Shown piece after piece: positions 1-35,825 of a DNA stretch of 64,000 bases. The translations under genes were made by a program, and so were the position numbers. Source of the DNA: Tetrahymena thermophila SB210 (taxonomy: Eukaryota > Ciliophora > Oligohymenophorea > Hymenostomatida > Tetrahymenidae); assembly GCF_000189635.1 (NCBI RefSeq), contig NW_002476569.1:126727-190726 (forward strand), in the 5' to 3' direction. How positions within the stretch are numbered: position 1 is the stretch's first letter; the number at the start of each line of letters is the position of its first letter. The notes below the pieces were generated by a model, which saw nothing but the letters and a program-made list of their open reading frames with translations, was not told where the DNA came from and searched no databases.

Positions 1-461
1 AGTCTTAATTACATTTTTTTAAATTTAATATAAAATATTGATAATATTATACTTATCTCAATCAACTTTATTATTAATTTATTAATTTGAGATTAAATTT
101 AAATTGATTATTTTATAATTAATTAATACTTATTTATTTCTACATTAACTTTTTTATTGATAAAATAATTTAATATTTTAATTTGTTTATTAAGTTGTAT
201 GTATGTATATCTATATAATATAATAAATATGACTTATTGGACGAAAGTCTTAATTAAATTTTTTTAAATTTAATATAAAATATTAATAATATTATACTTA
301 TCTCAATCAACTTTATCATTAATTTATTAATTTGAGATTAAATTTAAATTGATTATTTTATAATTAATTAATTCTCATTTATTTCTACATTAACTTTTTT
401 ATTGATAAAATAATTTAATATTTTAATTTGTTTATTATTTTGTATGTATGTATATCTATAA
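1..461. repeat. Two tandem direct repeats, period about 245 bases
   Basis: The stretch from 1 to about 213 recurs from 246 to about 461 with few changes. Both copies begin AGTCTTAATT and end in a GTATGTATGTATATCTATA run. No reading frame is evident. The first copy begins exactly at the window edge, so the array may extend further left. Confidence 0.8.
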
Positions 462-5166: not shown

Positions 5167-8100
5167 ATGAGTGTTAAGTAAACAAAGAAACAAATAGCTA
5201 GCTTAGTGGTTAATTGCTGCTCTAAAAAAACCAGTATTAAGAAGTTTTTCGAACTTATCGAGGTTTAACAAAGCCATTACACTGACTTCTCCTATTCAGG
5301 AAATGGTGCATTTTCATTTGTGCTAAAATCGACCAACAAAAAGACAGGCTAAATCGTAGCTCTGAAAGTGACTGAATGTGATGATAACGACATAAATGGT
5401 ATGAAGCAGGTTGATGAAGAATATAGACTGCTTAGATAATTTTCTAACTGTAAATACATCGTTTAGGTATTTAATTGTTTCTTTTTAACAGAAGAAGAAA
5501 GTTCAGATGAAGAGAGCAGTAATGATGATAGCGAGGAGATCAAAAAACAAAAAAAAGAAAAAAATCTGTTCTTTGTAGTTGAGCAAGAGTTCTGTTAAAG
5601 TAAATAATTTTAATTGCTTTTATTGTTTTAAGAGTATCATCGATCAAATAAGGAGTAGATTTAAAATTTAGTAGAGCGGCATTTTAATATTGCTACTTTT
5701 TGTTGATTTTGATAAGACTTTATTTGAAGATTTTCTTTTGTTTATGATCATTTATTTTGATCAAATTGAATTTAAAACAAAGAAAGTTAATGCATTATTC
5801 TAATAAAAAAATTTGAGATTTCTTATATCTTTCTTTGATAATTTGATTTTTCCATTTTCTTAATTCACCATTTTAAAAGAAGTGAATATTGATTGGTACT
5901 TATTAATAATAATTGATTGTTCCATTTATTTATCAAAATAATTAATATTTATATCATTCATTCATTTTAAAAATGATATTGCTTGATTTCTCATATTTTA
6001 TTTATCAAAAATTTAAATCAAATTTACTGATATATTCCTTTTATTTATTCACTTTATTAGCCTTAGACTCTAAGAAAGAATACATTCATTAGGTATTTAT
6101 TTTTTGATTATTTATATTTAAAACTAATAAATTTATGGAACAATCTTTATTTAATAAATCAATCATTTTTCTTTTAATTTTAATTATTAATTGATTTAAT
6201 CATTTTTTTGTAAAATTATTTATTCAAAACATACATTTAATGATACATAAATTAAAAAATTCGAGAAAGGAATAAATGAAGCCATTATTTTCTCTTCTTT
6301 ACAGCTTTAAATTTATAAAAGGATTTGACTTCGCCTTCTAAAAAAAAATTATTTAAAATTTCATAAAATTGCTATTCCTAAAATAAAAATATTGCCAATT
6401 TTTTAGGCACAGAGACAGAGGGCGATATTTCATTTAATTTTTATAATTTTAAGCTAATATTTTTCATTTTATATATATTATTTTTTAATTTTCAAAAAAT
6501 AACTCTCATATATCAAACCCCCCCTAAATCTACTCCTTATATGTTAATAAAAAGTATTCTTTTAGCTTAAGAGACAACTAATTTTCATTAATTTCATTTT
6601 ATTTTATCAAAAATAGCAAATTTAGAAAATTTCTTCACTCAATGCAGATTAAAAAAATCATATCCATGCTAACAATAGAAAGAAGTTATGGCAATTTAAA
6701 TGCTTGATTCTATAGCTTATCTTCACAGATTTGATTTACTTCATAGGGATATCAAACCATCTAATTTTCTTCTTTCATTAGATGAGAAGGAAATTCCTAC
6801 TGTCAAGATATGTAATCAAAAATTAAATAAATAAACCAACAATATATTCTTCTATTTTAAAAATTTCTTTGATTTTATTTATTTGATCTGAAAAAATAAA
6901 ATGAAATGATTTTTAAGAATTAAAGATAATCAATTAAATGATTAAATAAATTAGTTTATTAGTTATTAATTATTCTAATTAAAAATTTTCAATTTTAAAT
7001 ATTTTAAATAACTAAAATAAATTGAAAACTAATCATTTTTAAGCACGAATTAAACATTTTTGATAATCTTAACATCGATTAACTAAACTATGACTAAAAC
7101 GAATTGTATTTTTAATTATGGAAAATTAAGACTTTTAATAGTATTACCTAAAATATTTCATCCAAATTAAAAAAAATAAAATAAATAATTCAATTAAATA
7201 AATTTAACTTAAGCCTTACTATTTAAAATTTACTTATTTTTAAACTTAAAAATTAATTTATTTTTTATTTAAAATAAAAATTAGGTGATTTGTCTTTTGC
7301 TTCTGCTCTTAAGAACAATAAATCCAGAATTACAGTTTCTAAAATTGTAACTTAAACTTTCAATAAACATTTAATTTAACTTTAGTCTAATAAAATACTA
7401 AAAGAAAGGAACTTAAGCTTATTTTGCTCCAGAAGTAGAAAAAGGCATTTACAAAAAAGGGGTATTTTAAAAATTATAAATAATTTAAACAAAAATATTT
7501 TTTTTTAAAAATAAAAATATAGTCAGATATTTTCTCATTAGGAATAGTTTTGTTAGAGTTAGATAATATGGCAATTTTTAATTTTAACGAAACTACAAAT
7601 GAAGATAAATTAGAAATTAAATTTGCTAAGATTTTCCCTAATTATTAGATTGACAGACAATCATATATCTACAAGATAGCTTATTAATGTCTAAATTACT
7701 ATGTAGAAAATCGAAAATAAGCCATAGATTTACTCATTCAGTTCATATAAGAAAACTAAAATTATTTAGCAGTTGAACTTTCTTCTGTAATTAACAGAGT
7801 AAATATTTTTATTTTGATCTCTTCATTTGTAAAAAATTTATAAATGTAATTTTAGTCTTAATTATTGCAGAAATCAGAGCAACTAAGCTAAATTCAAAAA
7901 TCTATTATTGAAAAATAATAGAAAAAGAAGAGTGAAATCTTAGAACTCTCTTAATCATCCAAAGTAAATCAGTAATTTATAAGAAGGATATTTTTAATTC
8001 ATATTTATAATTTTAAAATCAATAGAATCAAAAACATTTCAAAAATTTAATCTAAATGTTTGATGTCCTTCAGTAAAAACCCTTTAAGGCATAAGAATAT

Positions 8101-10855
8101 GAAACTATTCTAAAGTTACTTTAGAGTATTCCTAAATATGACAGCAATTTTGAATTCATTTCTGTAGGTGCGAAAGGTTTGGTCCTTGGAACTTTTAACA
8201 AAACTTTAGGATTTAAAACAGTTTTAAAGATTCAATAAGTTCAATCTAAACATGAAGTTGTTCAAGAAGTTGGAATCATGAGAGATTGCTAAATGCCTCT
8301 TGTCATTAAGTTTTATGGCTATTTCTACTTGTCAGTCAATAAAAATGATGATTTTGTAGTTTATGAGATAGAGAAATGTTCTGGTAATATTTAAAAAATA
8401 AATAAATAAATTTTTTATCATTAATTTTCTTTTAATTATGTGAAAGTTTAATTTATAATTTATTATTTAAAGGTAACTTAAAATAGTATTTGACAAGACT
8501 TCAAAAAGAAAACATTGCCCTTACTGATAACCAAAAAATGCAAATTGCTGTATAGATTATTGATGTTGTAAATTATCTCAATTATAATGGAATTGTTCAC
8601 AGAGATATCAAATTAGATAACATTCTCTATATTGAAAGTTAATCTGATGTTCCCACAATTAAATTAGGTATTTTATTTTACTAATTTAGTTTTCATTTCT
8701 ATAAATAAATATTTATATTTCTCAATTCATTTTAAATTAGCCGATTTTGATCAATCTAGAAAGCTGCCTTATGAATTGTATTATAGAGATGATGAATTAG
8801 TTAAAGACTACTTTCCAGTATAAGGAATTGTAAATTTTTTAGATTAAAAATAAATTTATAACTTAATTAAAAAAAGAGTGGCACATTTGGGTATATAGCA
8901 CCAGAATTTTTCTAAAACATTTTGTACACTTTTGAGGTAATATATTTTCAATAACACATTTTAACTTTAATCTACTTACAATTCATTTTATTTTTTATTT
9001 CTTTATTTCTTTATTTATTTATTTATTTAGTTATTTATTTATTTATTTATTTGTAGTGTGAAGTATTCTCAGTTGGAGTTTGTCTTGCTTTATTAGATAA
9101 TTTTGAGAAATTAGAACCTGTTATTTTAAAAAAAGCACAAGATTACTTTTTTGGATTCAAAATACCTTTTGAATAAAATTTTCATGTAAAAGAAGAATTA
9201 ATAAACAGAAAGAGTTAGATTTATGATATCCTACTAAAAACTGTTGTATTTCAACCAAAGTAAAGGAAACCCTTATCTTAGATACTCCTTTACTTTTAAA
9301 AATAAGGATACTATTATTATTCTTAAATTTTTTCTCAAATTTCAACTGTAATTTTTCATTTAATTATAACTCTTTTATTCTTCATACATTCTTTTTAAAC
9401 TCAGGTCACTTCAGATCTTAAATATTTGAAAATACTTTCTCTTGATCATAAGTAAATTTTAATTATTCTATTAAATTTATTTATACCTCAATACTTTTTA
9501 AATTCATTTTTTTATTATTTTGGTTTTAATATTTTTAAATTATTTATAAAACAAGAAATTAAAAATTACTTAAAGGTGATGCTAGAAAAATCGCTTCCGA
9601 AATAGCTAAATATCCTACTCTCTCCACTTTAAGCCTTTGACCTCTAGTAATTTTTTACACATTTTCTCAATTTATAGTTTAAATAAATAATTAAAGAAAT
9701 CAAAGAATAACAAACAATATTTAATTAATTAAGTATTTTTGTTCATTTTAATTAGTAACAACAACATAGGCTCAGATGGGGCGAAAGCAATTGCTTCCGA
9801 AATAGCTAAATGTCCTACTCTCTCCACTTTAAGCCTTGACCTTGGGTAATTTTTTACACATTTTCTCAATTTATAGTTTAAATAAATAATTAAAGAAATC
9901 AAAGAATAACAAACAATATTTAATTAATTAAGTATTTTTGTTCATTTTAATTAGTAAAAACAACATAGGCTCAGATGGGGCGAAAGCAGTTGCTTCCGAA
10001 ATAGCTAAATGTCCTACTCTCTCCACTTTAAGCCTTGACCTTACGTAATTTTTTACACATTTTCTCAATTTATAGTTTAAATAAATAATTAAAGAAATCA
10101 AAGAATAACAAACAATATTTAATTAATTAAGTATTTTTGTTCATTTTAATTAGGTTAAACAACATAGGCTCAGATGGGGCGAAAGCAGTTGCTTCCGAAA
10201 TAGCTAAATGTCCTACTCTCTCCACTTTAACCCTTTGGCTTGGGTAATTTTTTACACATTTTATCAATTTATAGTTTAAATAAATAATTAAAGAAATCAA
10301 AGAATAACAAACAATATTTAATTAATTAAGTATTTTTGTTCATTTTAATTAGGGGGAATAGTATAGGCTCAGATGGGGCGAAAGCAGTTGCTTCCGAAAT
10401 AGCTAAATGTCCTACTCTCTCCACTTTAAGCCTTGACCTCTAGTAATTTTTACACATTTTATCAATTTATAGTTTAAATAAATAATTAAAGAAATCAAAG
10501 AATAACAAACAATATTTAATTAATTAAGTATTTTTGTTCATTTTAATTAGGATGAATAGTATAGGCTCAGATGGGGCGAAAGCAGTTGCTTCCGAAATAG
10601 CTAAATGTCCTTCTCTTTAAGATTTAAGGATTGATTTAAGGTATTTTATATTTGAATATAAAAATTAAAAGCACAAGGAATAATAATATATAAAATGTAA
10701 TTAATAATATTAAAATAAATAGGAATAATAAATTGAATGGGGATGTTTAGTTTATGAATCTTTTACCAAAAGATATTTAAATAAAAATTAAACATTTAAA
10801 TTAAGTAGTTTTTAATAGATTAATAGAAAATAATTAATTTGTAAAATAAAATTGA
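5167..10855 (+). CDS. Tandem two-kinase plus LRR-array protein, copy A (in-frame TGA at first array exon)
   Basis: Predicted exons are 5167-5599, 6617-6811, 7285-7346, 7405-7461, 7523-7798, 7871-7963, 8026-8383, 8473-8667, 8741-8829, 8877-8936, 9057-9347, 9405-9451, 9556-9646, 9756-9845, 9955-10044, 10154-10243, 10353-10442, 10551-10640 and 10723-10855; every join keeps phase. Kinase 1 spans about residues 40-330: loop SGNGAFSFV, VALK Lys67, HRDIKPSN with Asp189, DLS instead of DFG, and APE 238-240. Kinase 2 spans about 415-690: VGAKGLVLG, Lys440, HRDIKLDN with Asp536, DFD instead of DFG, and APE 594-596. An LRR array follows. Exon 13 has one extra base compared with copy B, creating an in-frame TGA at 9638-9640, so the product would be about 746 residues and lack the array. 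A predicted soluble Ser/Thr kinase; no membrane segment or signal peptide is seen. The substrate is unknown. Confidence 0.8.
5651..6537. mobile_element. TIR element in kinase gene intron 1 (copy A), MITE-like
   Basis: The 13-base terminal inverted repeats AGGAGTAGATTTA (5651-5663) and its complement (6525-6537) are perfect, and a TA dinucleotide flanks both ends. That is the target duplication typical of Tc1/mariner-type DNA transposons. The inside is AT-rich with no open frame long enough for a transposase, so it looks like a non-autonomous element. It accounts for most of the 1017-base first intron; the equivalent intron in the second kinase domain is only 89 bases long. The same element sits in copy B, so insertion preceded the duplication. 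Confidence 0.7.
9556..10640 (+). repeat. LRR exon/intron tandem array A (6 units, 199-base period)
   Basis: Six LRR exons (9556, 9756, 9955, 10154, 10353 and 10551 onward) are separated by five introns of 108-109 bases that are nearly identical. Each 90-base exon encodes one 30-residue repeat around a core NNIGSDGAKAVASEIAKC followed by PTLSTLSL. The inner units differ almost only in the last three codons before the donor and the first codons after the acceptor. Junction residues include D-L-G-K, D-L-T-L, W-L-G-G and D-L-Q-M. The first unit has a 91-base exon and a divergent start; the last has a divergent end (SLQDLRIDLR). Confidence 0.9.
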
Positions 10856-15855: not shown

Positions 15856-18800
15856 ATGAGTGTTAAGTAAACAAAGAAGCAAATAGCTAGCTTAGTGGTT
15901 AATTGCCGCTCTTAAAAAATCAGTATTAAGAAGTTTTTCGAAGTTATAGAGGTTTAACAAAGCCATTACACTGACTTCTCCTATTCAGGAAATGGTGCAT
16001 TTTCATTTGTGCTAAAAGCGACCAACTAAAAGACAGGATAAATCATAGCTCTCAAAGTGACTGAATGTGATGATAACGACATTAATGGTATGAAGCAGGT
16101 CGAAGAAGAATATAGACTGCTTAGATAATTTTCTAACTGTAAGTACATCGTTTAGGTATTTAATTGTTTCTTTTTAACTGAAGAAGAAAGTTCTGATGAT
16201 GATTGCAGTAATGATGATGAAGAAGAGGGAAAAAATGAGAAAAAAGAAAAAAATCTGTTCTTTGTAGTTGAGCAAGAGTTCTGTCAAAGTAAATAATTTT
16301 AATTGTTATTATTTTTTTATGAATCGCATCGAACTTTAGGAGTAGATTTAAAATTTAGTAAAGCGGCATTTTAATTTTGCTGCTTTTTGTTGATTTTGAT
16401 AAGACTTTATTTGAAGATATTCATTTGGTTATGATCATTTTAATCAAATCTAATTTAAAACAAAGAAAGTTAATGCATTATTCTAATAAAAAAATTTGAG
16501 ATTTCTTATATCTTTCTTTGATATTTTAATTTTTCCATTATCTTAATTCACCATTTTTACAAATGAGTTTTGATTGGTATGTATTTATTAATAATAATTG
16601 TTCCATCTATTTATCAAAATTATTAATATTTATATCATTCATATTATAAAAGATACTGTTTGATTTCTCATATTTTATTTATCAAAAATCTTAATCAAAT
16701 TTACTTATATATTCCCTTTATTTATTCACTTTATTAGCCTTAGACTATAAGAAATCATAGAATACATTCATTCGGTATTTATTTTTTGATTATTATCAAT
16801 ATTTATTTATATATTTAAAACTAATAAATTTATGGAACAATATTTTATTAAATCAATCATTTTTCTTTTAATTCAAGTTATTCATTGATTTAATATTTTT
16901 TTTGTTAAATTTTTTATTCAAAAACATAAATTACTAATCCTATAATTAAAATATCACCAACTGTGTAGGTAGGTAGGTACAGATGGTGATATTTCATTTA
17001 ATTTTTATGATTTTAAGCTAATATTTTTTTTTTAATTTTTAAAAAATATGGATCGTCCAATATATCAAACCCCCTCTAAATCTACTCATTCGATGCTAAT
17101 CAAAAATATTTTTTATATTTAAGAGGCAACTAATTAATTTCCACAAATTTCATTTTATTTTATCAAAATTAGCAAATTTAGAAAATTTCTTCACTTAATG
17201 CAGATTAAAAAAATCTTATCCATGCTAGCAATAGAAAGAAGTTATGGCAATTTAAATGCTTGATTCTGTAGCTTATCTTCACAGATTTGATTTACTTCAT
17301 AGGGATATCAAACCATCAAATTTTCTTCTTTCATTAGATGAGAAAGAAATTCCTACAGTCAAGATATGTAATCAATAAATATATAAATAAACCAACAAAT
17401 AAATTTGATTATTTTCAAAATTTTTCTTTATTTCTTTAAGTTTAAACCTTAAAATAAATTAAAATGATTTTTAAGAATTAGAGATAATCAGACTAAATAA
17501 ATAAGTTAATTAGTTATAAAATATTCTAATTTAAAATATTTAATTTTAAATCTTTTAAATAACTAAAATAAATTGAAAACTGATCATTTTTTAGCACGAA
17601 TTAAATATTTTTGATGATGTAAAAATCTTTATCTAAACTTTTACTCAAGCTAATTTTATTTTTAACTAAGGAAAATTAAGACTTTTTATAGTATTTATCT
17701 AAAATATTTCATCTAAATTAAAACAAATATTTAAGTAAATACAAAAAAATTTAAATAATTCAAATTAAATAAATTTAATTTAAGTCTTTCAATTAAAAAT
17801 TTACTTATTTTTTTTAAATTAGAGACAAAAATTCTAAATGTTTTTTAAGTTAATTTTAGTATTTAAACTTTAAAATTAAAATATTTTCTTTTTAAATTAA
17901 AAATTAGGTGATTTGTCTTTTGCTTCTGCCCTAAAGAACAATAAATCCAGAATTACAGTTTCTAAAATTGTAACTTAAACTTACAATAAACATTTAACTT
18001 AACTTTAGTCTTATAAAATATTAACAGAAAGGAACTTAGGCTTATTTTGCACCAGAAGTTGAAAAAGGCGTTTACAAAAAAGGGGTATAATAAAAATTAT
18101 AAATAATTTAAACAAAAAATATTTTATTTAAAAAATAAAAATATAGTCAGACGTTTTTTCATTAGGACTAGTTTTGTTAGAGTTAGATAATATGTCAAAT
18201 TTTAACTTTAATGACACTACAAATGAAGATAAACTAGAAATTAAATTTGCTAAGATTTTCCCTAACTATTAGATTGACAGACAATCATATATCTACAAGA
18301 TAGCTTATTAATGTCTAAATTACTTTGTAGAAAATAGAAAATAAGCTATAGATTTACTCATTTAGTTTATATAAGAAAACTAAAATTACTTAGCCGTTGA
18401 ACTTTCTTCTGTAATTAACAGAGTAAATATTTTTATTTTGATCTCTTCATTCATCAAAAAATTTGTAAATATAATTTTAGTCTTAATTAAAGTAGAAATC
18501 AGAGCAACTTAGTTAAATTCAAAAAACTATTATTGAAAAGTAATAGAAAAAGAAGAGTGAAATCTTAGAACTCTCTTAATCATCGAAAGTAAATCAGTAA
18601 TTTATAATAAGGATATTTTTAATTCATATTTATAATTTTAAAATCAATAGAATCAAAAACATTTCAAAAATTTAATCTAAATGTTTGATGTCCTTCAGTA
18701 AAAACCTTTTAAGGCATAAGAATATGAAACTATTCTAAAGCTACTTTAGAGTATTTTTAAATATGATAGCAATTTTGAATTTATTTCTGTAGGTGCGAAA

Positions 18801-21596
18801 GGTTTGGTCCTTGGAACTTTTAACAAAACTTTAGGAATTAAAACAGTTTTAAAGATCCAATAAGTTCAATCTAAGCATGAAGTTGTTCAAGAAGTTGGAA
18901 TCATGAGAGATTGTTAAATGCCTCTTGTCATTAAGTTTTATGGCTATTTCTACTTGTCAGTCAATAAACAAGATGATTTTGTAGTTTATGAGATAGAGAA
19001 ATGTTCTGGTAATACTTAAAAAATAAATAAATAGATTTTTTATCATTAATTTTATTTTAATTATGTGAAAGTTTAATTTATTATTTATTATTTAAAGGTA
19101 ACTTAAAATAATATTTGACAAGACTTCAAAAAGAAAACATTGTGCTTACTGATAACCAAAAAATGCAAATTGCTGTATAGATTATTGATGTTGTAAATTA
19201 TCTGAATTATAATGGAATTGTTCACTGAGATATCAAATTAGATAACATTCTCTATATTGAAAGTTAATCTGATGTTCCCACAATTAAATTAGGTATTTTA
19301 TTTTACTAATTTAGTTTTCATTTCTATAATAAATATATATATTTCTCAATTCATTTTAAATTAGCCGATTTTGATCAATCTAGAAAGGTGCCTTATGATT
19401 TGTATAGAATGGATGGCGAAATAGTTAAAGACTACTTTCCAGTATAAGGAATTGTAAATTTTTTAGATTAAAAATAAATTTATAACTTAATTAAAAAAAG
19501 AGTGGCACATTTGGGTATATAGCACCAGAATTTTTCTAAAACATTTTGTACACTTTTGAGGTAAAATATTTTCAATAACACATTTTAACTTTAATCTACT
19601 TATAATTCATTTTATTTTTTATTTGTTTATTTCTTTACTTATTTATTTATTTGTAGTGTGAAGTATTCTCAGTTGGAGTTTGTCTTGCTTTATTAGATAA
19701 TTTTGAGAAACTAGAACCTGTTGTTTTAAAAAAAGCACAAGATTACTTTTTTGGATTCAAAATACCTTTTGAATAAAATTTTCATGTAAAAGAAGAATTA
19801 ATAAACAGAAAGAGTTAGATTTATGACATCCTACTACAAACTGTTGTATTTCAACCAAAGTAAAGGAAACCCTTATCTTAGATACTCCTTAACTTTTAAA
19901 AATAAGGATACTATTATTATTCTCAAATTTTTTCTCAAATTTCAACTGTAATTTTTCATTCAATTATAGCTCTTTTATTATTCATTCATTCTTTTTAAAC
20001 TCAGGTCACTTCAGATCTTAAATATTTGAAAATACTTTCTCTTGATCACAAGTAAATTTTAATTATTCTATTAAATTTATTTATTCCTCAATACTTTTTA
20101 AATTCAATTTTTTATTATTTTGGTTTTAATATTTTTAAATTATTTATAAAACAAGAAATTAAAAATTACTTAAAGGTGATGCTAGAAAAATCGCTTCCGA
20201 AATAGCTAAATGTCCTACTCTCTCCACTTTAAGCCTTTACCTCTAGTAATTTTTTACACATTTTCTCAATTTATAGTTTAAATAAATAATTAAAGAAATC
20301 AAAGAATAACAAACAATATTTAATTAATTAAGTATTTTTGTTCATTTTAATTAGGTAAAACAACATAGGCTCAGATGGGGCGAAAGCAGTTGCTTCCGAA
20401 ATAGCTAAATGTCCTACTCTCTCCACTTTAAGCCTTGACCTCTAGTAATTTTTTACACATTTTCTCAATTTATAGTTTAAATAAATAATTAAAGAAATCA
20501 AAGAATAACAAACAATATTTAATTAATTAAGTATTTTTGTTCATTTTAATTAGGTTAAACAACATAGGCTCAGATGGGGCGAAAGCAGTTGCTTCCGAAA
20601 TAGCTAAATGTCCTACTCTCTCCACTTTAAGCCTTTGGCTATAGTAATTTTTTACACATTTTCTCAATTTATAGTTTAAATAAATAATTAAAGAAATCAA
20701 AGAATAACAAACAATATTTAATTAATTAAGTATTTTTGTTCATTTTAATTAGTAACAACAACATAGGCTCAGATGGGGCGAAAGCAGTTGCTTCCGAAAT
20801 AGCTAAATGTCCTACTCTCTCCACTTTAAGCCTTGACCTTAGGTAATTTTTTACACATTTTCTCAATTTATAGTTTAAATAAATAATTAAAGAAATCAAA
20901 GAATAACAAACAATATTTAATTAATTAAGTATTTTTGTTCATTTTAATTAGTAACAACAACATAGACTCAGATGGGGCGAAAGCAGTTGCTTCCGAAATA
21001 GCTAAATGTCCTACTCTCTCCACTTTAAGCCTTTGGCTATAGTAATTTTTTACACATTTTCTCAATTTATAGTTTAAATAAATAATTAAAGAAATCAAAG
21101 AATAACAAACAATATTTAATTAATTAAGTATTTTTGTTCATTTTAATTAGTAACAACAACATAGGCTCAGATGGGGCGAAAGCAGTTGCTTCCGAAATAG
21201 CTAAATGTCCTACTCTCTCCACTTTAAGCCTTGACCTTAGGTAATTTTTTACACATTTTCTCAATTTATAGTTTAAATAAATAATTAAAGAAATCAAAGA
21301 ATAACAAACAATATTTAACTAATTAAGTATTTTGTTCATTTTAATTAGGTCTAACAACATAGGCTCAGATGGGGCGAAAGCAGTTGCTTCCGAAATAGCT
21401 AAATGTACTATTCTTTAAGATTTAAGGATTGATTTAAGGTATTTTATATTTGAATATAAAAATTAAAAGCACAAGGAATAATATAAAATAAAAAGTAATA
21501 AATAATATTTTAATAAATAGGAATAATAAATTAAATGGGGAATTTTAATTTGTAAATCTTTTACCAAAAGATATTAAAATAAGAATTTAACATTGA
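15856..21596 (+). CDS. Tandem two-kinase plus LRR-array protein, copy B (in-frame TGA in kinase 2)
   Basis: Predicted exons are 15856-16288, 17173-17367, 17908-17969, 18028-18084, 18147-18422, 18496-18588, 18651-19008, 19098-19292, 19365-19453, 19501-19560, 19657-19947, 20005-20051, seven LRR exons (20156-20245, 20355-20444, 20554-20643, 20753-20842, 20952-21041, 21151-21240, 21349-21438) and 21521-21596. Exon sizes match copy A. Kinase 1 keeps its glycine loop, VALK-type Lys (IALKV here), HRDIKPSN, and DLS in place of DFG. In kinase 2 the Arg codon of HRD (residue 535, AGA in copy A) is TGA at 19226-19228. Conventional translation would therefore stop after 534 residues, losing kinase 2 and the LRRs; read through, the protein would be 953 residues. 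The LRR array itself is in frame throughout. It may be a young pseudogene, or the TGA may be a polymorphism or sequence error. Confidence 0.8.
16338..17089. mobile_element. TIR element in kinase gene intron 1 (copy B), decayed
   Basis: This is the same element as 5651-6537. The left terminal repeat is intact at 16338-16350. The right one survives as TAAATCTACTC at 17077-17087 and then diverges, and the TA target duplication is no longer visible. It is about 135 bases shorter inside and encodes nothing. It shares its insertion site with copy A. Confidence 0.65.
20156..21438 (+). repeat. LRR exon/intron tandem array B (7 units, 199-base period)
   Basis: Seven 90-base LRR exons alternate with six near-identical introns of 108-109 bases. 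Residues at successive exon junctions read Y-L-Q-Q, D-L-Q-L, W-L-Y-N, D-L-S-N, W-L-Y-N, D-L-R-S and D-L-R-N, always followed by N. Outside these codons the inner units are almost base-for-base identical; one unit has IDSDG for IGSDG. The units beginning at 20753 and 21151 are nearly identical, as are the ends of those beginning at 20554 and 20952, which points to expansion by two-unit steps. Confidence 0.9.
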
Positions 21597-25065: not shown

Positions 25066-27047
25066 ATGCAATTCAGGTAATTAAAAAAAAAATAAATTTA
25101 ATAATATTTTTTTGAAGCAGCTAAACAGTTGACAACAATGATTTGAATAATCTTTTAACTATGTTAAAGCCATATCATAAGAAGATAGAAATATTTTTTG
25201 CGTAAAATTAATTTTAGCTATAATTTATTGTTAATTTTGTAATATAGTGAACAAATATAGTTCAAATCTTCAGCAATACAAAAATTTGGAGAAATATTAA
25301 TGTCTATAAAAAATATAAATTATCTTCAACTAGTTATCAAGTAAATAATTATATGTTTATAAATTTGGTTTGATATTCATGTTATTATTTAAGAAAATGT
25401 GTATTAGAAGGATTAGAAGAGATAGAACAACTGGCTTTAGTGTTACAAAAACTACAAATTTAAGAAATAAACTTGGTTCTTTAGTAAAAAAAATATTAAA
25501 CTCTTCAAAATTTAAATCAAAAATTAGATATTTAATTCTTCAAAAAGACTTTTAGATAAAATAACAACAAAGCAGTAAATTTCAACCAAATATTTTATAA
25601 GTTAAAAAAATTATGCAGAAAAACTTTTTTATAATTTGATTTAATTTTAAAATATGGTATGCATACTTATTCAAAAAAAAAATTATAAATAGAATAATTT
25701 TAAAGAGAAAAAATTATTGGTTTTTAATAATAAATTTTGTTGATAAAGATAATTTATAATTTAAATTTGATCTATTGACATACTCAAATATAAATAAATA
25801 GAATATATAAATATAATTTTTAAGAGCATTTAAAAATATTATCACAAAGAAATAAAAGTGATTGATTAATCTTTAAGATGTTTATTTAATGAAAAGATAA
25901 TCGAATTTGAGATAGTAAGGTTATATTAAATTAATATAACTATTTTCTTCCAATAAAACTGTGAAGGATCTATCTTTGGATTTAAGGTAAATATTAAAAA
26001 TTCTTATAAAAATGAAGCATTACTAATTATCTTTAAAAATAATCTAAGTGTAAATTCTTTAGGACCTACAGGCTGTTCTTAGGTATGTCAATATCTAAAA
26101 AACTTTGAAAATATACAAGTTCTCAGTCTTAATTTAGGGTATTTATTATTTTAAAAAATAAAATTAATCTTTAAATATTTAAAGATCAAATACAATTAAA
26201 CAATCTGGAGCGATCGCTTTAGGTTAAGAGCTTTCTAAACTTTAATCTTTGAAAGAACTAAATTTGAATATATCGTAATTTATTAATTATAAATGTAAGA
26301 AATAAAATTAAATTCTTTTATAAAAGTTGCAATAGCATAGGTTAAGATGGAATAAAGTAAATGCTTAATAATATATTAAAAATTACTGCTTTACAAACCT
26401 TAGATTTAAATTTAAAGTAAGTTTTTTATAACTTCCATAAAAAGATTAAATTCTATTTAATTTAATTTAACAAAAGTTAAAATTTCTTATCTGATTTTGG
26501 AGCTAAGCAGATAGGTGTTGAATTATTTGCTTCTAAATTATAAAAAGTGTCTCTAGATTTAATGTAAGTATTTTTATAATAAAAAAAAATAAAGTAATAA
26601 AATTGTAATATCTATTTTTATAAATAAAGGCATAATTCTTTAAGTTAATAAGGAATAATTGAATTTCTAACATAATTAAATTTTTCGTATTCCCTAATTA
26701 CTATTTCGCTAAATTTAAAGTATAATAAATAATCATTTTAATAAAACAATATTAAATTTATTTATTTATTTATTTACTTATCAAAAGCGAAAATCAAATA
26801 AAAAATGACTCAATAAATGTAATACTTGAGAATCTTTCTCAATTGAAAAGAATCAAATTTCTAGAATTACTTTTTAGGTGAAACTAAATTTAATTTAGAT
26901 AAAGCATAATTTAATTTCTAATTTTATAGTGTTGAAAGAAATACTGATACTGAATAGTATATATAGTTTGGTAGAGCTTTAAAATAATGCCAATACTTAA
27001 ATGCTTTAAAAATAAATGTCTGTGATCAGTCGTATATTATTAAATGA
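25066..27047 (+). CDS. Leucine-rich repeat protein (about 340 aa, 12 exons)
   Basis: Exons are 25066-25076, 25118-25201, 25248-25340, 25394-25483, 25897-25986, 26049-26138, 26185-26274, 26327-26416, 26477-26563, 26630-26719, 26788-26877 and 26930-27047. They sum to 341 codons with every intron in phase 2. Nearly every internal exon encodes one LRR of 28-31 residues, for example SGAIALGQELSKLQSLKELN and LNNILKITALQTLDLNLK. The start ATG at 25066 was chosen because it gives phase 2 into exon 2. The fourth intron is long (413 bases) and could hide a decayed repeat. There is no signal peptide, membrane segment or catalytic domain, so a cytosolic binding protein is likely. Unlike the kinase-linked arrays, these repeats have diverged fully from one another. 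Confidence 0.72.
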
Positions 27048-27705: not shown

Positions 27706-30700
27706 TCATTCAGTTTTCTTTTCCTATGTATACTATTAAAGCACTGATTAAACTTGATCATATTTAAAAATAGGAAGATAAAGCAATTATTAAACTTTTT
27801 ACATCATCAATTCAATATCGTCTTTTAATTCTTCATCAAATTATTTACTAATTTTTTCCTTTTTATCTGTAAAGAGTGAAGAAACGGTATTTAAAAATAC
27901 GTCTTATAATCTAACAACTTCATTTTATTAATTAAATAAACAAAATTATTGCTTTTAAGGATCTTCAAAATCAGTAGATTAAATATTTATTTTTTGCAAT
28001 TTATTTTTCATAAACTAATCATCATCGAGTATTTGATATAATTATGAATTTTCAAGGGCATTATTTTGACCAATCAATCTAATCTCTGGTTCAATATCTA
28101 TTTTATTATTTTCATAATCATTATAATAACACCACTAATACAAACAATTTTAATCAAACTAATCCATATCAAAACTTAAAACTATCTTATATTGATGAGA
28201 AACTGTTTCTTGTTAGTTTTATTATTATTTATATTTCATAATTAAAACAAAATCTTAATCAAATTAATTTCTATTGTAGTGATTTTTTTGTTTTTCCTTT
28301 TATTTTATTTCATAAAGCTAATCAAGTTCAAATTTAATCAACTCCAATATTGCATGATTACAAATTAAAATCTCAAAGAAATAAATATGAATTTAATTAT
28401 TATTAATCAATATTTTTATAAATTACTTGAAATCGAAGTAAGAAATCTTGTTATCTTTTAAATTTAATTTGATAATTTTCTCTTATTTATTGGTTTTATG
28501 TAATATATCATTCATAGTTATTAGAGATTATTTTGTTAGATTGCACTACTAAAAATTTAATATTATTTGTTTGTGATGAAAAGTATTTAAAATATTATCA
28601 AATAAACAATGAAAGCCATCATCTCCAACATTTATTTCATTAAAGCAAAATTACAGAATAAAATCTTTGTTTTTAAAGTTAAAATTTGCTATTTTTTTTA
28701 CTGTAAAGCAATAATTCTTACTAAAAGCTATTAAATTTTTAATAAGCTATTGATAATCTATTGAAATATATTTTTATTTGATATTTTACTCAGTTGTATC
28801 ACTGTCATTTTAAATTTATTTGCTATCTAAAATATTGATTTTATATTTTAAATCTATCAAAACTTCTGAGCTTTATTCTTGGTCTATGTAATATTAAAAA
28901 ATGTCATCTCTTTCTTTTAAAGTAGTATCAGTTTGAAAGCAGCTGAATAAGGATTACTCAATTTAATAAGAATCATAATCTTTAAATTAAGTAATAACCT
29001 ATTTAAAGCACGAGTAACTTTCAATGAGCATGAACTGTTAATAGTAATTCATAATGCACAAATATAAATCATAAAATTTATCTAAAATATTATGTAAATT
29101 ATTATCATGGTAGTATTATATTTTCAAGTGAGGAAAACTATAAACAATATCGTCATCATCTTCATCGTTTCTATCTTCATCTTCATAGGTAAAAGCACTT
29201 TTTCCATAAGATATAACTAATTTCTAGAAATGCATTTTATTTTAAATGGAGGAAATAATTAAATCAATTTTTTCATATTCTTTGTTAATATATTCATGTT
29301 TGTTCTTCATATCGATTTTAATTATATTCTATTCTCCTATGTCTAAAAATTTATATTCATCTAGTATTTATCCTCTGTAATCCTAATGTTTTCCTAGCAT
29401 AAATTGCATATTTTATAAGTCTGTTTCGTTAAGTTATAAATTTAATCTACTTGCATTATCTTTTTCCCCATTAATTTATATTTACTCTTCTTTAATATTT
29501 AATTTCATTTCATCTTACATTTTATTTTCAATGTTAGAAATTTATTTGTCAGAGATCAAAAGTCCTTTCTACATTTCTTATTCAGAGCCAAGTACACTTA
29601 TGCTTAAATCAAATTCCACTTTTTTTGAGCTTTCTTAATTAGATAATTCTGGTTCAAGCAAATAATTTTAATCATTAGCATGAGAAAATAAGAACTGAAT
29701 TTGATTATTTATTTTTTAAATTTCTCTTAAATAGCTTATAGCTTTTTCATCAAACTAACAATTGATTATAACAACTTCTATCAAGTTATTTTCAATTATC
29801 TGAACTAAATATTACCATATTTTTAAATTCATAAAAAGAAAATTTGAAAATTTGATGATAATTTTGCAATTATTTTAAACATAATATGCTAAATAATTTA
29901 AAATTATTAAAATATCTTCTTCCATTTCAGAACATAAACTATTTTTAACATCGAAAAGCAACTAGTAATCTTAAGAACAAACATTTTCATCGCCATTCAA
30001 ATCATTTTAATTTTGATCTATTTTACATAATTTCTAATAAATGTCTTTTATCTTTTATCTACAGCAACTTGCATTTTAATTTTTATTTATATAATCTTCT
30101 TTAATTTATTTTAATTATTGCTATTTTAAAATCAATTCTTATGAGAATTCATAAAAAATCTTAAATTTAAGATTGATTGGTGAATTAGTATTTAAATTAA
30201 TCATTTTAAACATCATATATAAGTGCTTTTATAAATTTGGGTATTAATAATTTACTTCAAAATTTCCTATTTCCTATTTTGCATATTTTTCATGGTAAAA
30301 ATAAAAATCAATTGTTCTGGTTTAAAACTTATTTAATAATTCAATAAATTGTTATTCTAAATTGTTTTATAATTAAAAGAAACTCATTTCAAATTTTACA
30401 ATTGAATCGCTTTTATTTTCTGAATTTATTTTAGTTTTAAATTCTATCTAATTTATTAAGCAAATACTTTAAACTTGTAAATATTTTAAATCCTTTTCTA
30501 GTATCTCTAAAAAATCGATCAATGCATCATCTTCACACAAGAAATTAAACTCTAAAAGACTACTCTTATTTGTTGCATATTCAATGGAAGGTAGCAAGTT
30601 TTTAAGTATTTCAATATTTTTGATATTAATGGAAATGACACCTTTTTCTTTTACTTTAAGATATTCGCACATATTATGCAAATTGTAAGATCCCAATTCG

Positions 30701-32046
30701 AAATAAAAATTTTAGCATATTTTCTCATGATACAATTATAGTAATTTGTATTTATTATAAATATGTTCATATTCTTTTAGTCCAATCACTGGTTTAATAA
30801 TCATTTATTCTGAATTCATCTCAATTACACAATTTGATTGATCAAGCAGATATAATAATCTGATACTTTATTAATCAATTTTGTAAACTGAATAACTATT
30901 GGTTTCTTCATTGTAAACCACATCATTAGAATAAGTTAATTCCTCTCTGATAATAGCTAGGTTAAGAAAAAATGGAGAGTTTTTTACTGAATTTTCATCT
31001 CCAAAAATTTTAATATTACTATCAGCTTTATTTAAAATAGAGCTAATGAGATAGAGCACTAATTTTCTGCTATTTTGCTAACTTTTTTCATATAAAATTA
31101 AAAAAATATCATTCCATTTTTTTTCATAAAAGAAATTTTTAAGCTGGCTATCGTTGCAAAATAAAAATAAAAAAGTTATAGCAAGCTGAGTTTTATCACA
31201 AAGTTTTGCTTCTTCAGGACTGTTAAATTCTTTAATTATATATCCATCACTATTTGGATCTTTTTATATGTAGGTATTCAAATTATAATTATAACTAAAG
31301 CTGGTCAAATAATCTTAGTAGTTTTCTAACAAAACAGCACCTCCAAAATCAATGAAAAAAGGCTCATTTTCATACGAAACAACAATATTCAAAGGCTTTA
31401 TATCTGAATGAGCTATACCAAGTTCATGCATTTAGTTTAGCTTATTATTAAGAACAAAAAAGTATAATTCAAAGAGATGACTGCACTTAGTTTTTTCTTT
31501 TAAAGCATATAAATTAGTTTTACCAGCTATTTGTTAAAACTATCTATTTTCATCTATTTTTGAAATAATATCTAAAGTTATTTTCTTATCTTTTAACATT
31601 TACAATATTTTGTATTCTGAGTCAAAATTTTCCGAATCAAGAAGATTTTTTTTAACAATTACAAATGATTTTAATTCACTCTTGTAAATAAGCTCTACAA
31701 TGGTATTTTTATTTTATAACAATCTGCATAATTCAAATTATTATTGTTAATTGTTTTCTTCATTTTAGTTTAACTTGTTTATTTTATCATTAAACCTAGC
31801 TCTTCTTTTTTTTTTAAATACCTTCTTTAAGATTGTATTTTAAGCTTCTTCATCATTCTAAAAAAAATTAACTTAGAATATACTGTTTTCTTTTTTAATT
31901 TCTTAATCTTATTCAGGCTTTGAATCTAATTATTAGCTTTCTGTCTATACTTTTGACGTTTCCAAATCATTAATCAAAGAATCTTCTAGCAAATCAGAAT
32001 TTTTGCATGTATAATCTATTTTTAGAGGTTAATAAATTTAAAACAT
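27706..32046 (-). CDS. Very long protein with N-terminal kinase-like domain (1446 aa, intronless)
   Basis: A single open frame under the ciliate code runs from ATG at 32046 to TGA at 27708-27706. After a Gln/Glu/Lys-rich N terminus of about 100 residues there is a kinase-like domain. It has a lysine strand FVIVKKNL (about residue 125), MHELGIAHSDIKPLNIVV with the catalytic Asp (about 215) and FIDFGGAVLL (about 235). The Arg of HRD is Ser, and no APE motif or glycine loop could be placed, so the fold may be divergent or weakly active. The remaining 1100 residues alternate hydrophobic strands and helices with acidic or Asn-rich linkers and have no recognised domain; some segments (INLKFKIFYEF) look like solenoid strands. 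No membrane segments. It converges on the LRR gene at 25066 and is back-to-back with the kinase-TPR gene at 32928. Confidence 0.85.
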
Positions 32047-32927
32047 GAAAAAATAAATTTCTTTCTAAATCTATTTTTATTTTATGTTATGAGACTTTTT
32101 TAACTTAAAAGGCTTTTTTTTATGAAATTGAATTAATTAATTTTATCTTTTTAATTTAATAAAAATACTTTTTTAATTCAAATTTATATAAATATTTTAA
32201 TTACTTTCAATCCTAATTAATTAAGCCATACTCCTACCTCCTTCCCTTCCCCTTAAATTTTTTGTTGAATGTTTCCAATATATAAGTTTAATATAAAGTT
32301 AATCAACAGTAATTAAGTAATTAGAGTGTATTTTATTTAATTGAAATTTGTATTAAAGACAAAATTATTATTTTTATTAAATTAGTAATATCTATATAAT
32401 ACTAAACAATTTACTTCAAGGAAAGTAATAATTTAGAAAATTTGTATTAGATAGATTTATAAATTGTTTTTTTATTAGAATAATAATAAATTAATTATTA
32501 AAAAATTTAGCTTTATTTCATAATATAGATCACACATATCAATTTCAATTTTCAATTAGAATATTTAAGTTTTACTAAGAAATATGTTTTGCAATTTTAT
32601 TTATAATTGATAATTAATTATTTTCAAAGATTTAAACCACTTTCTTTGTATTAATAACTATTTTATCAGCTATAGCAATTCTTTTAAATACTATCTAAAT
32701 AATTATCAAAGAAAATAAATTCTTTGATATTAAGTAGAAGTTTAGGGTTTAAGAAGATTACTGCATTAGTTGCATAATAAATATAAAATAATATATCCTA
32801 TTTTAGAGTAATTTTACTAAAATTAAGGTTATCTCACTTTAAGATTGAAAGAAACAGATAGAATTTCTAGAATCTTTCATAGAAATAGGCATTTATATTT
32901 TCATAATAATAACAATAGTTTAGTATT
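32047..32927. other. Divergent intergenic region upstream of two kinase genes
   Basis: It contains the 5' flanks of the minus-strand gene and of the kinase-TPR gene. The last 500 bases are clearly similar to 36100-36645 upstream of the second kinase-TPR gene, including a GAAGTTTAGGGTTTAAGAAG stretch (about 32737 and 36457), so a conserved promoter/5' UTR is plausible. The frame of the kinase gene stays open upstream of its ATG, but the paralogue supports the ATG at 32928. Confidence 0.45.
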
Positions 32928-35825
32928 ATGAAAAATTTACTATAAAATAGAAGCTAAAAGTAAACCATATAAGTTAAAGAAAAGGAAGGAAAGCCCAAAA
33001 TATTTTTAAGTGAATGTAATTCAATAAATATAGAAAAGACAATTTAGTCAAAGATTAATAAAACTTATAGTAATGGCATTCATAACAAGTATTAATGTTA
33101 AAATTAATAAATATATGAATCATTCTTTTAGCAAAATGAATTTTAGGGAGATTAATAAGAAAATGCAATAATTTAGAGCGAAGAGATAAAAAATAGTCAA
33201 AATGTTTAATTACAATTTTCAGACAACAATATTTAAACCTATACACATTAAGAATAAAATTATTTTTAAAAAAAATAATATATCAATACACATTAACAAG
33301 AAAATATTAAATCAGAAATATTTGGCAATTTATAAAGCTTTTATGAAGAAAATAAAAATATACATACTTTGCAAATAAAATATCAAAATTCTTTAGATAA
33401 ATATATTAATTTATATGATAAAGAACAAACGAATTAAGATTTGACTATTAAAAGAAGAGATTTAACTAAAAAACTAACATAAAAAACAATTTAAAGCTAA
33501 AATAGCTTTAATCCTAGTTATCATGATATATAATAATAATCTGTAAAATATTCAGGAGATTATTAGGAATAACCATCAAATATGTTAATTACTAACTAGT
33601 ATACGAATTTTATGAATAACCAATCATAAAATTAATAACTTTAGATTGAATAAAAATTAAAATAAAAAGGTTATCGCTAGGGTTAACTTATAGCAAAAGG
33701 TAGTTTTGGAAAAGTTTATGATGGAAAAATAATTGCATAAGATGAGAATCAAGAAAAAGAATGTGTCTTTAAAGTATTATTTTATTAAAACGACAAGTAG
33801 TTATAGGATATAGAGTAAGAAGTTTAAATTATGAAAAAATTTGAGAAAAATATTAATTTTTTATAGATTATTGACGATTTCAAAATAGATGAAGGTATAT
33901 TTGTTATTGTTATCGAAAAATGCAAATATACTCTTCAACAATAATTAAAAGATTTATAATAAGGTGGATTCAAATTTTTATTGCTTCTTTAAATTATATT
34001 TAACCTTCTTGATGGATTGATTTTACTCAAAGCACATAAGATTCTTCATTGTGATATTAAGCCTACAAATATCTTAGTCAAACAGGAAGGGATTCATGTT
34101 TATTGTGATTTTGGTATATCTGTAACAATAAATGAATCTGAAAATGGAGTTGATTTTAAAGGATATACTGAATATTATGCGCCTAAAGAATAACTAAAAA
34201 ATGATAAATAAAAGGCTGGGAATTGGACAGACATATTTTCTCTAGGAAGGACATTTCAAGAAGTACTTAAAGTATACTAATAGATAAATGGGTAGGAGAT
34301 AAAAGAATTTAATGAATTCGTTAATTAGATGACTGAAGATGATATAAATAAAAGACCTGATTGCTTAAAGATTCATGAAATGTTTTTTAAATATGTTTTA
34401 AATTTAAAAGAAAATTTTATAGATAAATTCGAATTTTATAAGCTGTACACAAACAAAATATAACAATTGTTGCTTTTATTTGCTTATGATGAAAATATAG
34501 ATAGATAATTCTACTCTGATGTTTAAATTTATTACAATAAACTGTTACTTACCTTTTACCAAAATATTCATGACACAAATTAGCCTTACGATCAACCAGA
34601 ACTAGCAACCTTATTGTACAACCTTGGAAATTGTTATTTTAAATAAAGAAAGCGCAAAGAAGCATTATAATACTTTGAATAGTCACTTGAAATAAGGGAA
34701 AGGCTATTTAAATATGATCACATTGATACAGCTAACACTTTATTCAAAATAAGTTATTGCTAATTTGTAAATAATGAGATTAAATTAGCTTACGATTTTT
34801 CATATAGAGCTTTGATCATGAGATTAAAACTCTTTAAAAACAGTAATCACCCTGACATCGCTGATTCTCTTAATGATTTAGGATTGCGCTGTTAAAATTT
34901 AGGGGATAATAAAAAAGCGATGGATCTTATTTAAAAAGCTATAGATATGTTAGAAGCAATCAACCAAAATAATAATGAAAAATTAGCAATTTATTACAAC
35001 AGTCTTGCAGTTATTTAACAAAATAATGGAGAATATCTAAAAGCAAAAATTAATCTTGAAAAAGCTAATGAAGTTCTAGAAAAATTTGAAAAAAAAAATA
35101 TTCCTTATTAGTCACTCATAATTTAAAACATTGGCAACTTAAATAATTTTTTAGGAGATTACTAGAAAGCTGAAAAATATTTATTAAAATCTCTTAATCT
35201 AAGAAAAGAAATATTTAAAGAAGACCATTAAGATATTGCTACAAATATGAATTACATTGGTGATAGCTACTTAGGTTTAGGAGATTACTAAAAAGCTTTA
35301 GAATTCTATTTAAAATCTCTAAGGATAAGATAGAAAATATTAAATAAAAACCATAACTCAATTGCAACTTCTCTTAACAGTGTTGGAAACTGTTATCTGA
35401 AGTTAAAAAACTACAAATAAGCATAGAAAAATTTATTTTAGTCTCTAAATATGAGATAAAATTGTAAAGAAATAAACCCTCTTCACATTGCAATTTCTCT
35501 CAATTAAATTGGAGAGTTTTACTATGAACTTAAAGATTATAAAATTGCACTAGAATATTATCAAGAATCTCTTGCTATTGCTAAAAGAGCACTCAGATAA
35601 AATCATCCTCACTTTGCAAAGTATTTTTATAATTTAGCCCTTTGCTACTAATAGCTAGGATATGATTTTAAATCTTAGCTTTACTTTCTATTTTCTTATG
35701 AAATAAAAAATTAAGCTAATTAATTCATATTAGAAAAAGAATTAAAAATGTCTCCTTATTTATAATTCTATTTGAAATTCTTGCAGTACACAAAAAAATA
35801 CAAAAAAAAATTTGAAATAAATTGA
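32928..35825 (+). CDS. Protein kinase with C-terminal TPR repeats, copy 1 (965 aa)
   Basis: One uninterrupted frame with no intron. A Gln/Asn/Ser-rich N terminus of about 245 residues is followed by a kinase domain: AKGSFGKVYDG, VFKVL with the ATP-binding Lys, ILHCDIKPTNILV (Asp near residue 375), CDFGISV, YAPKE in place of APE, and WTDIFSLG. From about residue 555 there are about nine TPR units spaced 42 residues apart, of the kinesin-light-chain type, such as ATLLYNLGNCYFKQRKRKEA and ATSLNSVGNCYLKLKNYKQA. TPRs bind partner proteins, so this is probably a soluble kinase recruited by protein-protein contacts. The ATG at 32928 was chosen because the paralogue starts at the same codon. Its tandem copy follows 820 bases downstream. 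Confidence 0.88.

What the first reader, a model, noticed from the sequence alone, without database searches (positions are those of the whole stretch)
9556..10640. LRR array A: variation confined to codons at exon-exon junctions, identical introns
In the inner units the 30-residue repeats are nearly identical at the base level, and so are the 109-base introns between them. Differences fall almost only in the last codons before the donor and the first codons after the acceptor (for example D-L-G-K, D-L-T-L, W-L-G-G, D-L-Q-M). In ribonuclease-inhibitor-type LRRs these residues lie on or just after the beta-strand that forms the ligand-facing surface. Conserved introns with changing junction codons are the reverse of what neutral drift gives. 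It suggests homogenisation of the units together with diversifying selection or a targeted process at the junctions, comparable in outcome (not mechanism) to lamprey variable lymphocyte receptors.
Basis: partly seen in the sequence, partly recalled or inferred. Interest (0 to 1): 0.85.

Follow-up and report, generated by a model that had tools for sequence, protein, structure and literature searches.

The report
Hypervariable binding codons in repeated receptors
A ciliate gene built from near-identical repeated pieces changes almost only at the codons for its predicted binding surface, while the introns between the pieces stay almost identical, a pattern expected of fast-evolving recognition proteins.

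Summary
Confirmed. Array A is a run of phase-2, 90-base LRR exons with 108-109-base introns in a kinase-LRR gene of a Tetrahymena-like macronuclear genome. Among its four inner exons, 13 of 15 variable bases fall in the 18 bases at the exon ends; the five introns differ at three aligned columns. The pattern holds in 24 of 24 arrays examined. The variable codons are the solvent-exposed positions of the LRR strand and turn (xLxLxxNx), so the intron sits inside the predicted binding surface. Amino-acid change there exceeds silent change in the other codons 6-8 fold. In the 257-base-intron family, silent sites between the variable codons do not vary, which argues against a junction-targeted mutator. 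In the 109-base family they are saturated: exon tails behave as old mini-haplotypes shared between arrays, with no detectable linkage to exon heads across the intron. Best reading: homogenisation of units plus selection for diverse surface residues, as in Podospora HNWD and brown-algal LRR-ROCO genes. The gene family is known (Xiong 2019). Genes A and B each carry a disabling change in this assembly. Somatic variation is untested.

The parts
7568..7798 (+). gene A predicted exon 1 (start ATG)
   Evidence: open frame, GT donor in all three paralogues
7871..9347 (+). gene A predicted exons 2-7 (7871-7963, 8026-8383, 8473-8667, 8741-8817, 8877-8936, 9057-9347): protein kinase domain
   Evidence: Pfam Pkinase E 4e-27 on the spliced product; GT-AG in A, B and C11a
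9405..9451 (+). gene A predicted exon 8: first LRR strand (VTSDLKYLKILSLDH and the split codon), ends in phase 2
9556..9646 (+). LRR exon 1 of array A, 91 nt: one extra base at the x7 codon, reads into TGA
   Evidence: 90 nt and open in paralogues B and C11a, 91 nt with TGA in A
9647..9755 (+). LRR intron 1, 109 nt
9756..9845 (+). LRR exon 2 (NNNIGSDGAKAIASEIAKCPTLSTLSLDL, junction residue G)
9846..9954 (+). LRR intron 2, 109 nt, identical to intron 1
9955..10044 (+). LRR exon 3 (KNNIG...SLDL, junction residue T)
10045..10153 (+). LRR intron 3, 109 nt, identical to intron 1
10154..10243 (+). LRR exon 4 (LNNIG...TLWL, junction residue G); its last 14 nt match tails of C75 and C55 arrays, its core and following intron are C11-type
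10244..10352 (+). LRR intron 4, 109 nt (one substitution against introns 1-3)
10353..10442 (+). LRR exon 5 (GNSIG...SLDL, junction residue Q encoded TA|G)
10443..10550 (+). LRR intron 5, 108 nt
10551..10640 (+). LRR exon 6, C-terminal type (MNSIG...LQDLRIDL)
10723..10855 (+). predicted terminal exon of gene A, ends at TGA 10853-10855
   Evidence: open frame after an AG acceptor; splice site inferred
18192..20049 (+). kinase part of paralogue gene B; the Arg codon of HRD is TGA (19226-19228)
20156..21438 (+). array B: LRR exons at 20156, 20355, 20554, 20753, 20952, 21151, 21349 (90 nt each) with 108-109-nt introns

Best explanation
These are kinase-LRR proteins whose LRR domain is a tandem array of one-repeat exons kept alike by exchange between units (unequal crossing-over and gene conversion, within and between neighbouring genes), while selection keeps the exposed residues of the concave LRR face diverse. 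Shown by sequence: introns and exon cores are homogenised; the codons N-4, N-2 and N-1 relative to the conserved Asn (with N-6 and N+1 less strongly) are very variable; the same codons vary in a second family with another intron. Inferred: (a) the diverse residues bind ligands and the N-terminal kinase passes on a signal; (b) because the phase-2 intron cuts the surface into an exon tail (N-6 to N-2) and an exon head (N-2 to N+1), recombination in the identical introns and cores re-pairs tails and heads, making new surfaces from old parts; (c) the ligand class (prey bacteria, toxic prey products, parasites or non-self) is unknown.
For: Within-array diversity: exon tails (8 nt) 0.26-0.56, heads (10 nt) 0.11-0.47, cores 0.005-0.16, introns 0-0.21; tail and head each exceed core and intron in 24 of 24 arrays. 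Surface pN over silent pS of the other codons: 8.0 (jackknife SE 1.9) in 16 short-intron arrays and 6.2 (SE 0.5) in 7 arrays with 257-nt introns; surface pN over intron divergence in the latter 11.9 (SE 2.8). Silent sites of the Leu and Asn codons between the variable codons in the 257-nt family: pS 0.000. Between-array structure: Fst 0.65 intron, 0.53 core, 0.17 tail, 0.24 head (13 nt). Kinase part of the same genes pN/pS 0.19-0.22 and kinase introns 4.1-6.6%, against 0.4-1.2% for LRR introns. No detectable tail-head linkage across the intron (P 0.13, 95 junctions) or across the core (P 0.13, 116 exons), but strong linkage inside tail and inside head. Identical 14-nt tails shared between array groups: 13 pairs against 3.0 expected, P 0.0005. 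HMMER aligns N-4, N-2 and N-1 with the x positions of LxLxxN in a solved LRR chain (DRC5).
Against: Within the surface codons themselves silent change is as high as amino-acid change (pN/pS 1.12 in the 109-nt family, 0.80 in the 257-nt family), so selection shows only against other codons and introns; multi-base codon differences make the split into silent and amino-acid steps uncertain there. In the 109-nt family the silent sites of the structural Leu and Asn codons are as variable as the surface codons (flank pS 0.54, surface pN over flank pS 1.03). The intron ratio in that family (31.9) has a jackknife SE of 36.8. In the decayed array C119b surface pN is only 1.8 times core pS (0.49, 0.27). 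Genes A and B each carry a disabling change in this assembly, so these two copies may no longer be under selection. Linkage tests across the intron have modest power. Sharing of 8-nt tails alone is only suggestive (18 pairs against 11.9, P 0.078). No expression, ligand, strain or germline data.
Confidence: 0.7

Rival explanations
1. A local mutator or programmed process acts on the exon ends (germline or during macronuclear development), producing diversity without selection.
For: In the 109-nt family silent sites of the Leu and Asn codons at the junction are saturated (pS 0.46 and 0.75); surface codons in both families have high silent change; diversity is 0.03 or less in the first 11 intron columns; the extra base in array A exon 1 lies in the x7 codon.
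Against: In the 257-nt family the Leu and Asn codons between the variable codons show no silent change in 47 units, and codons 5-6 away from the junction vary. Most exons keep 90 nt (exceptions: 91 nt in A, three of 87 nt in C75c), unlike error-prone joining. Tails recur exactly: 38 types in 95 junctions and shared 14-mers, so they are stable on the time scale of duplication.
Confidence: 0.11
2. Old standing variation: a few diverse seed units were amplified recently; the junction parts are old and have not yet been homogenised, with no present selection for diversity.
For: Silent saturation in the 109-nt family, low Fst of tails and shared tail haplotypes; genes A and B are damaged.
Against: Homogenisation would have to cover intron and core on both sides yet skip 8-14 bases without selection; the 257-nt family shows codon-sized variation inside young units.
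Confidence: 0.14
3. Relaxed constraint: surface codons are free to drift while the rest is held by purifying selection.
For: Variable residues are solvent exposed; core pN/pS is only 0.66-0.90.
Against: Silent sites of the other codons and introns, the neutral yardsticks, are 6 to 32 times less diverged than the surface codons (the upper figure poorly determined).
Confidence: 0.04
4. Assembly artefact: collapsed or mis-joined repeats.
For: Several contigs end inside or next to arrays (C12, C75, C119) and two contig ends share units (L035, L037).
Against: Collapse removes variation and cannot place it at the same codons in 24 arrays on many contigs.
Confidence: 0.01

Closest known systems
Tetrahymena 90-bp-exon LRR genes, group III (Xiong et al. 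2019, PMC6564038; abstract, sections 8, 9, 11, 15 part 1 of 2, 25, 27 and search passages seen)
   Same: Exactly 90-bp exons, phase-2 introns, tandem arrays, ectopic recombination, some fused to protein kinases: I file it in that family.
   Different: The parts seen report purifying Ka/Ks for most genes and six conserved leucines; 'positive selection', 'diversifying' and 'ligand' do not occur in the main text. Diversification of concave codons against homogenised introns is not described in the parts seen; supplementary figures (sequence logos) were not seen.
Brown-algal LRR-ROCO genes (PMC11378527; passages seen; the original Zambounis 2012 paper is not held)
   Same: One LRR per exon, phase 2, tandem exons, positive selection at four concave sites (14, 16, 18, 19), which I infer are the same N-6, N-4, N-2, N-1 positions.
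   Different: 72-bp exons, ROC-COR instead of kinase, alternative splicing of LRR exons; the passages seen do not use introns as the neutral yardstick.
Podospora HNWD (het-d/het-e) WD40 repeats (PMC1805685, PMC2873952; passages seen)
   Same: Near-identical repeats exchanged within and between loci, four surface codons per repeat under diversifying selection.
   Different: NACHT-WD40 in a fungus; allorecognition role described there, unknown here.
Fungal NLR ANK/TPR repeats with high internal conservation (PMC4986451; passages seen)
   Same: Conserved repeats with positively selected sites, nearly all on the concave side.
   Different: Different repeat folds; that paper found no LRR in fungal NLRs.
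Lamprey variable lymphocyte receptors (recalled)
   Same: Diversity on the concave LRR face.
   Different: Somatic assembly from cassettes; nothing of the kind shown here.

Membership tests
Tetrahymena group III 90-bp-exon LRR genes | tandem exons of exactly 90 bp, at least three in a row | tested here: met
   5 of 6 array A exons and 7 of 7 array B exons are 90 nt; A exon 1 is 91 nt. The exon finder itself asked for 90 nt.
Tetrahymena group III 90-bp-exon LRR genes | phase-2 introns | tested here: met
   exons read open from their second base, with a split junction codon
Tetrahymena group III 90-bp-exon LRR genes | T. thermophila intron peaks at about 257 and 122 bp | tested here: inconclusive
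   window arrays 108-109 nt, related arrays mostly 102-119; a family with introns mostly 241-265 nt is in the same genome. The paper's consensus-repeat masks were not available.
Tetrahymena thermophila (species) | telomerase RNA | tested here: inconclusive
   RF00025 hit, 162 bits; the sequence agrees with T. thermophila TER as I recall it; no record was compared
RI-type LRR domain | LxxLxLxxNxL-like consensus, match to known LRR models | tested here: met
   PF13516 LRR_6 E 2e-17 for the whole peptide; PDB LRR chains such as DRC5, NLRP2 and Ran GTPase-activating protein 1
Protein kinase | kinase domain with Lys, HRD, DFG | tested here: inconclusive
   Pkinase E 4e-27; gene A has HRDIKLDN but DFD in place of DFG; gene B has TGA at the HRD Arg. 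Motif names recalled.
Podospora HNWD type | homogenised repeats plus diversifying selection at surface codons | tested here: met
   by comparison with other codons and introns, not by a codon model
Podospora HNWD type | NACHT and WD40 domains | tested here: not met
   kinase and LRR found
Brown-algal LRR-ROCO | ROC-COR domain, 72-bp exons | tested here: not met
   no ROC hit in the 450-aa kinase part or the 149-aa LRR part; exons are 90 nt
Lamprey VLR | somatic assembly from cassettes | not testable with these tools
   no germline genome or clonal reads available
Diversity-generating retroelement target | adenine-only changes from a template repeat | tested here: not met
   variable codons differ at all bases, e.g. 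AAC, TCT, GAC, TGG, GGG (by inspection); reverse transcriptase and template not searched

The most novel reading that the evidence does not exclude
The intron-split surface is a combinatorial device: short tail and head cassettes (about 14 and 10 bases) circulate among arrays and are re-paired by recombination inside identical introns and cores, and in the short-intron family the ciliate code makes almost every pairing readable (18 stops in 9025 tail-by-head pairings, 2034 under the standard code). In the boldest form, not excluded, re-pairing also happens somatically when the macronucleus is built or its many copies recombine, so that clones carry different receptor surfaces. I give the germline form about 0.4 and the somatic form the probability stated here.
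Probability: 0.07. Interest if true: 0.95.

Novelty: new variant of a known kind. Interest (0 to 1): 0.62.

Why it matters
Tetrahymena species are reported to have more than a thousand LRR genes in most cases, function unknown (PMC6564038). If their exposed codons are kept diverse against an internal neutral clock (one intron per repeat), they are candidates for a germline-encoded recognition repertoire in a single-celled predator, parallel to fungal and brown-algal systems. The one-intron-per-repeat layout gives a built-in neutral control that repeats without introns lack, and it makes the role of recombination in building binding surfaces measurable in a genetically tractable organism.

Tried and rejected
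Exon finding failed twice (loaded only the window; one search had a regular expression one residue off) before worked. A fuzzy-match script for broken units timed out and was replaced by blastn. In one search the coordinates of the first LRR exon were two bases off, so its translation after the exon-8 part is out of frame and is not used; one search reads that exon correctly. Junction-targeted mutation rejected for the 257-nt family on its invariant neighbouring codons; error-prone joining judged unlikely on mostly constant exon length. Adenine-specific (DGR-like) change rejected by inspection of codons. Functional constraint on introns judged unlikely because array C119b has 20% intron divergence. 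Structure prediction was not run: the tool takes proteins read letter for letter from the DNA and this one is spliced; I relied on HMMER alignment to solved structures. No codon-model test was run; recombination breaks tree-based tests and no such program was at hand.

Rows dropped before counts: L032 (duplicate of array B), three of seven L037 units (duplicates of L035), other-family hits of the exon finder (on L039+, L040+, L041, L044 and in the window at 25897-26630 and 41036-41491). The 17 short-intron arrays hold 137 finder exons; without C119b (18) and three last exons with QDL, 116 were used; the three QDL exons remain only as the downstream head of a junction. Other last exons (C119, C330) were kept. 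C75c and C12b are probably two pieces of one array cut by contig ends. C160 (L047) was fetched but has a single match and was not used. The exon finder required 90 nt and some conserved core residues, so core diversity is underestimated: blastn found further units, including three 87-nt exons in C75c and one 90-nt exon in C11a. Array numbers are lower bounds. For the 257-nt family 20 regions were asked for and 6 obtained; with L040, already held, 7 arrays and 47 units were used, two of them with only three units.

Full report
WHAT IS THERE. The window is part of contig 11 of a 101-Mb, 445-contig genome; its genes read open in the ciliate code. The telomerase RNA agrees with that of Tetrahymena thermophila as I recall it; no record was compared. 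Array A is the LRR part of a predicted kinase-LRR gene: exons 7568-9451 encode a kinase (Pfam Pkinase, E 4e-27) and a first LRR strand, then come one 91-nt and five 90-nt LRR exons (9556-10640) and a short terminal exon. Array B (20156-21438) and a third copy upstream of the window (C11a) are paralogues with the same exon plan.

In array A, 13 of 15 variable bases among the four inner exons lie in the last 8 or first 10 bases of the exon. The five introns (109, 109, 109, 109, 108 nt) show three variable columns, two of which come from one length difference. Per short-intron array, mean pairwise difference in the last 8 bases is 0.33-0.56, while introns are 0-0.03 in 15 of 17 arrays; the exceptions are C175a at 0.09 and the decayed C119b at 0.21.

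IT IS GENERAL. Seventeen short-intron arrays on C11, C75, C12, C55, C119, C330 and C175 and seven arrays of the 257-nt-intron family all show higher diversity in exon tail and head than in core and in intron, 24 of 24. Two of the 24 (C75c, C12b) are probably pieces of one array, and two of the seven have only three units.

WHICH CODONS. Relative to the conserved Asn (N) of LxLxxN, the strongly variable codons are N-4, N-2 (split by the intron) and N-1, with weaker variation at N-6 and N+1. HMMER aligns N-4, N-2 and N-1 with the x positions of LxLxxN in a solved LRR chain, DRC5. In RI-type LRRs these residues line the concave face (established knowledge). In the 109-nt family, pooled over 16 arrays, at least 11 residue types occur at each of the three.

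SILENT AND AMINO-ACID CHANGE. In the 257-nt family surface pN is 0.48, silent pS in the other codons 0.078, intron divergence 0.041, and pS at the two structural codons next to the variable ones 0.000. This is what selection for amino-acid diversity predicts and local hypermutation does not. In the 109-nt family surface pN is 0.55, core pS 0.069 and intron 0.017, but pS at the structural codons is 0.54. There the junction segments look older than the units that carry them. Against the reading: within the surface codons silent change is high too (pS 0.61 and 0.49), so a dN/dS test confined to them gives 0.80 and 1.12; repeated amino-acid replacement would also scatter third bases, but I cannot separate the two. 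In the decayed array C119b surface pN is only 1.8 times core pS.

HOMOGENISATION. LRR introns differ by 0.4-1.1% within and 0.7-1.2% between the three C11 arrays, while the kinase introns of the same genes differ by 4.1-6.6% and kinase pS is 0.10-0.11 with pN/pS 0.19-0.22. Most simply, the LRR units have exchanged sequence after the genes duplicated. Across arrays, Fst is 0.65 for introns and 0.53 for cores but 0.17 for tails and 0.24 for the first 13 bases of the head. Exchange removed variation except at and next to the surface codons.

CASSETTES. Bases inside a tail, and inside a head, are strongly linked; tail and head are not detectably linked across the intron (P 0.13, 95 junctions) or across the core (P 0.13, 116 exons). 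Identical 14-nt tails occur in different array groups more often than chance allows (13 pairs, 3.0 expected, P 0.0005), although 8-nt tails alone are only suggestive (18 pairs, 11.9 expected, P 0.078). Exon 4 of array A carries a tail otherwise seen in C75 and C55 arrays, on a C11-type core with a C11-type intron, as a short conversion tract would leave it. The ciliate code helps in the short-intron family: 17 of 95 split codons are TAA or TAG, read as Gln, and all but 18 of 9025 possible tail-head pairings avoid a stop, against 2034 stops under the standard code. The 257-nt family uses none (0 of 35), and there only 49 of 1225 pairings would stop under the standard code, so this is no general rule.

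DAMAGE. Gene A has one extra base in its first LRR exon, which then reads into TGA, and gene B has TGA in place of the HRD arginine. These may be recent pseudogenes or assembly errors. C11a is open in the parts read (exons 1-8; first LRR exon; seven finder exons; one more LRR exon).

WHAT IS KNOWN. The gene family, its 90-bp exons, phase-2 introns, expansions and ectopic recombination were described by Xiong et al. 2019 (PMC6564038; abstract and sections 8, 9, 11, 15 part 1 of 2, 25 and 27 read, plus search passages). Its main text does not contain 'positive selection' or 'diversifying'; supplementary figures were not seen. Searches for Tetrahymena LRR with positive selection and concerted evolution, with ectopic recombination, for later work on these genes, and for ciliate LRR with hypervariable and immune, listed no other paper whose title or abstract start treats this (in one search only 12 of 47 papers were listed; open-licence papers only). 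The closest systems are brown-algal LRR-ROCO (PMC11378527, passages) and Podospora HNWD (PMC1805685 and PMC2873952, passages), with fungal ANK and TPR repeats (PMC4986451, passages).

VERDICT. A real and widespread pattern in a known gene family, best explained by selection for surface diversity in homogenised repeats: new in its detail, not in its kind. The function as a recognition repertoire is inferred, and somatic variation is untested.

Noticed in passing
window 19226-19228: Gene B has TGA in place of the HRD arginine codon of its kinase domain; genes A and C11a read Arg there.
   Followed up: partly
window 8741-8817: The kinase motif DFG reads DFD in genes A, B and C11a.
   Followed up: no
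window 10442-10551 and related arrays: 17 of 95 split junction codons in the short-intron family are TAA or TAG (Gln in this code), 0 of 35 in the 257-nt family.
   Followed up: partly
L034, L035, L042, L053: Signs of multi-unit duplication inside arrays: alternating units with identical or nearly identical ends, and a 3-nt in-frame deletion present in three units of C75c.
   Followed up: partly
L035 and L037: The ends of contigs C75 and C12 share at least three LRR units in the same order and probably join.
   Followed up: no
window 25897-26719 and 41036-41580: Weaker LRR-like 90-nt exons picked up by the exon finder, perhaps older LRR genes or chance matches.
   Followed up: no
window 1-460 and 62360-62463: AT-rich tandem repeats of 245 bp (1.9 copies, 96%) and 52 bp (2 copies, 98%).
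   Followed up: no
window 8987-9052: A TTTA run of about 17 copies in a kinase intron of gene A.
   Followed up: no
window 27706-32415 (-), 32049-35825, 36316-39444 and 58663-62328 (+): Open frames of more than 1000 codons under the ciliate code, not identified.
   Followed up: no
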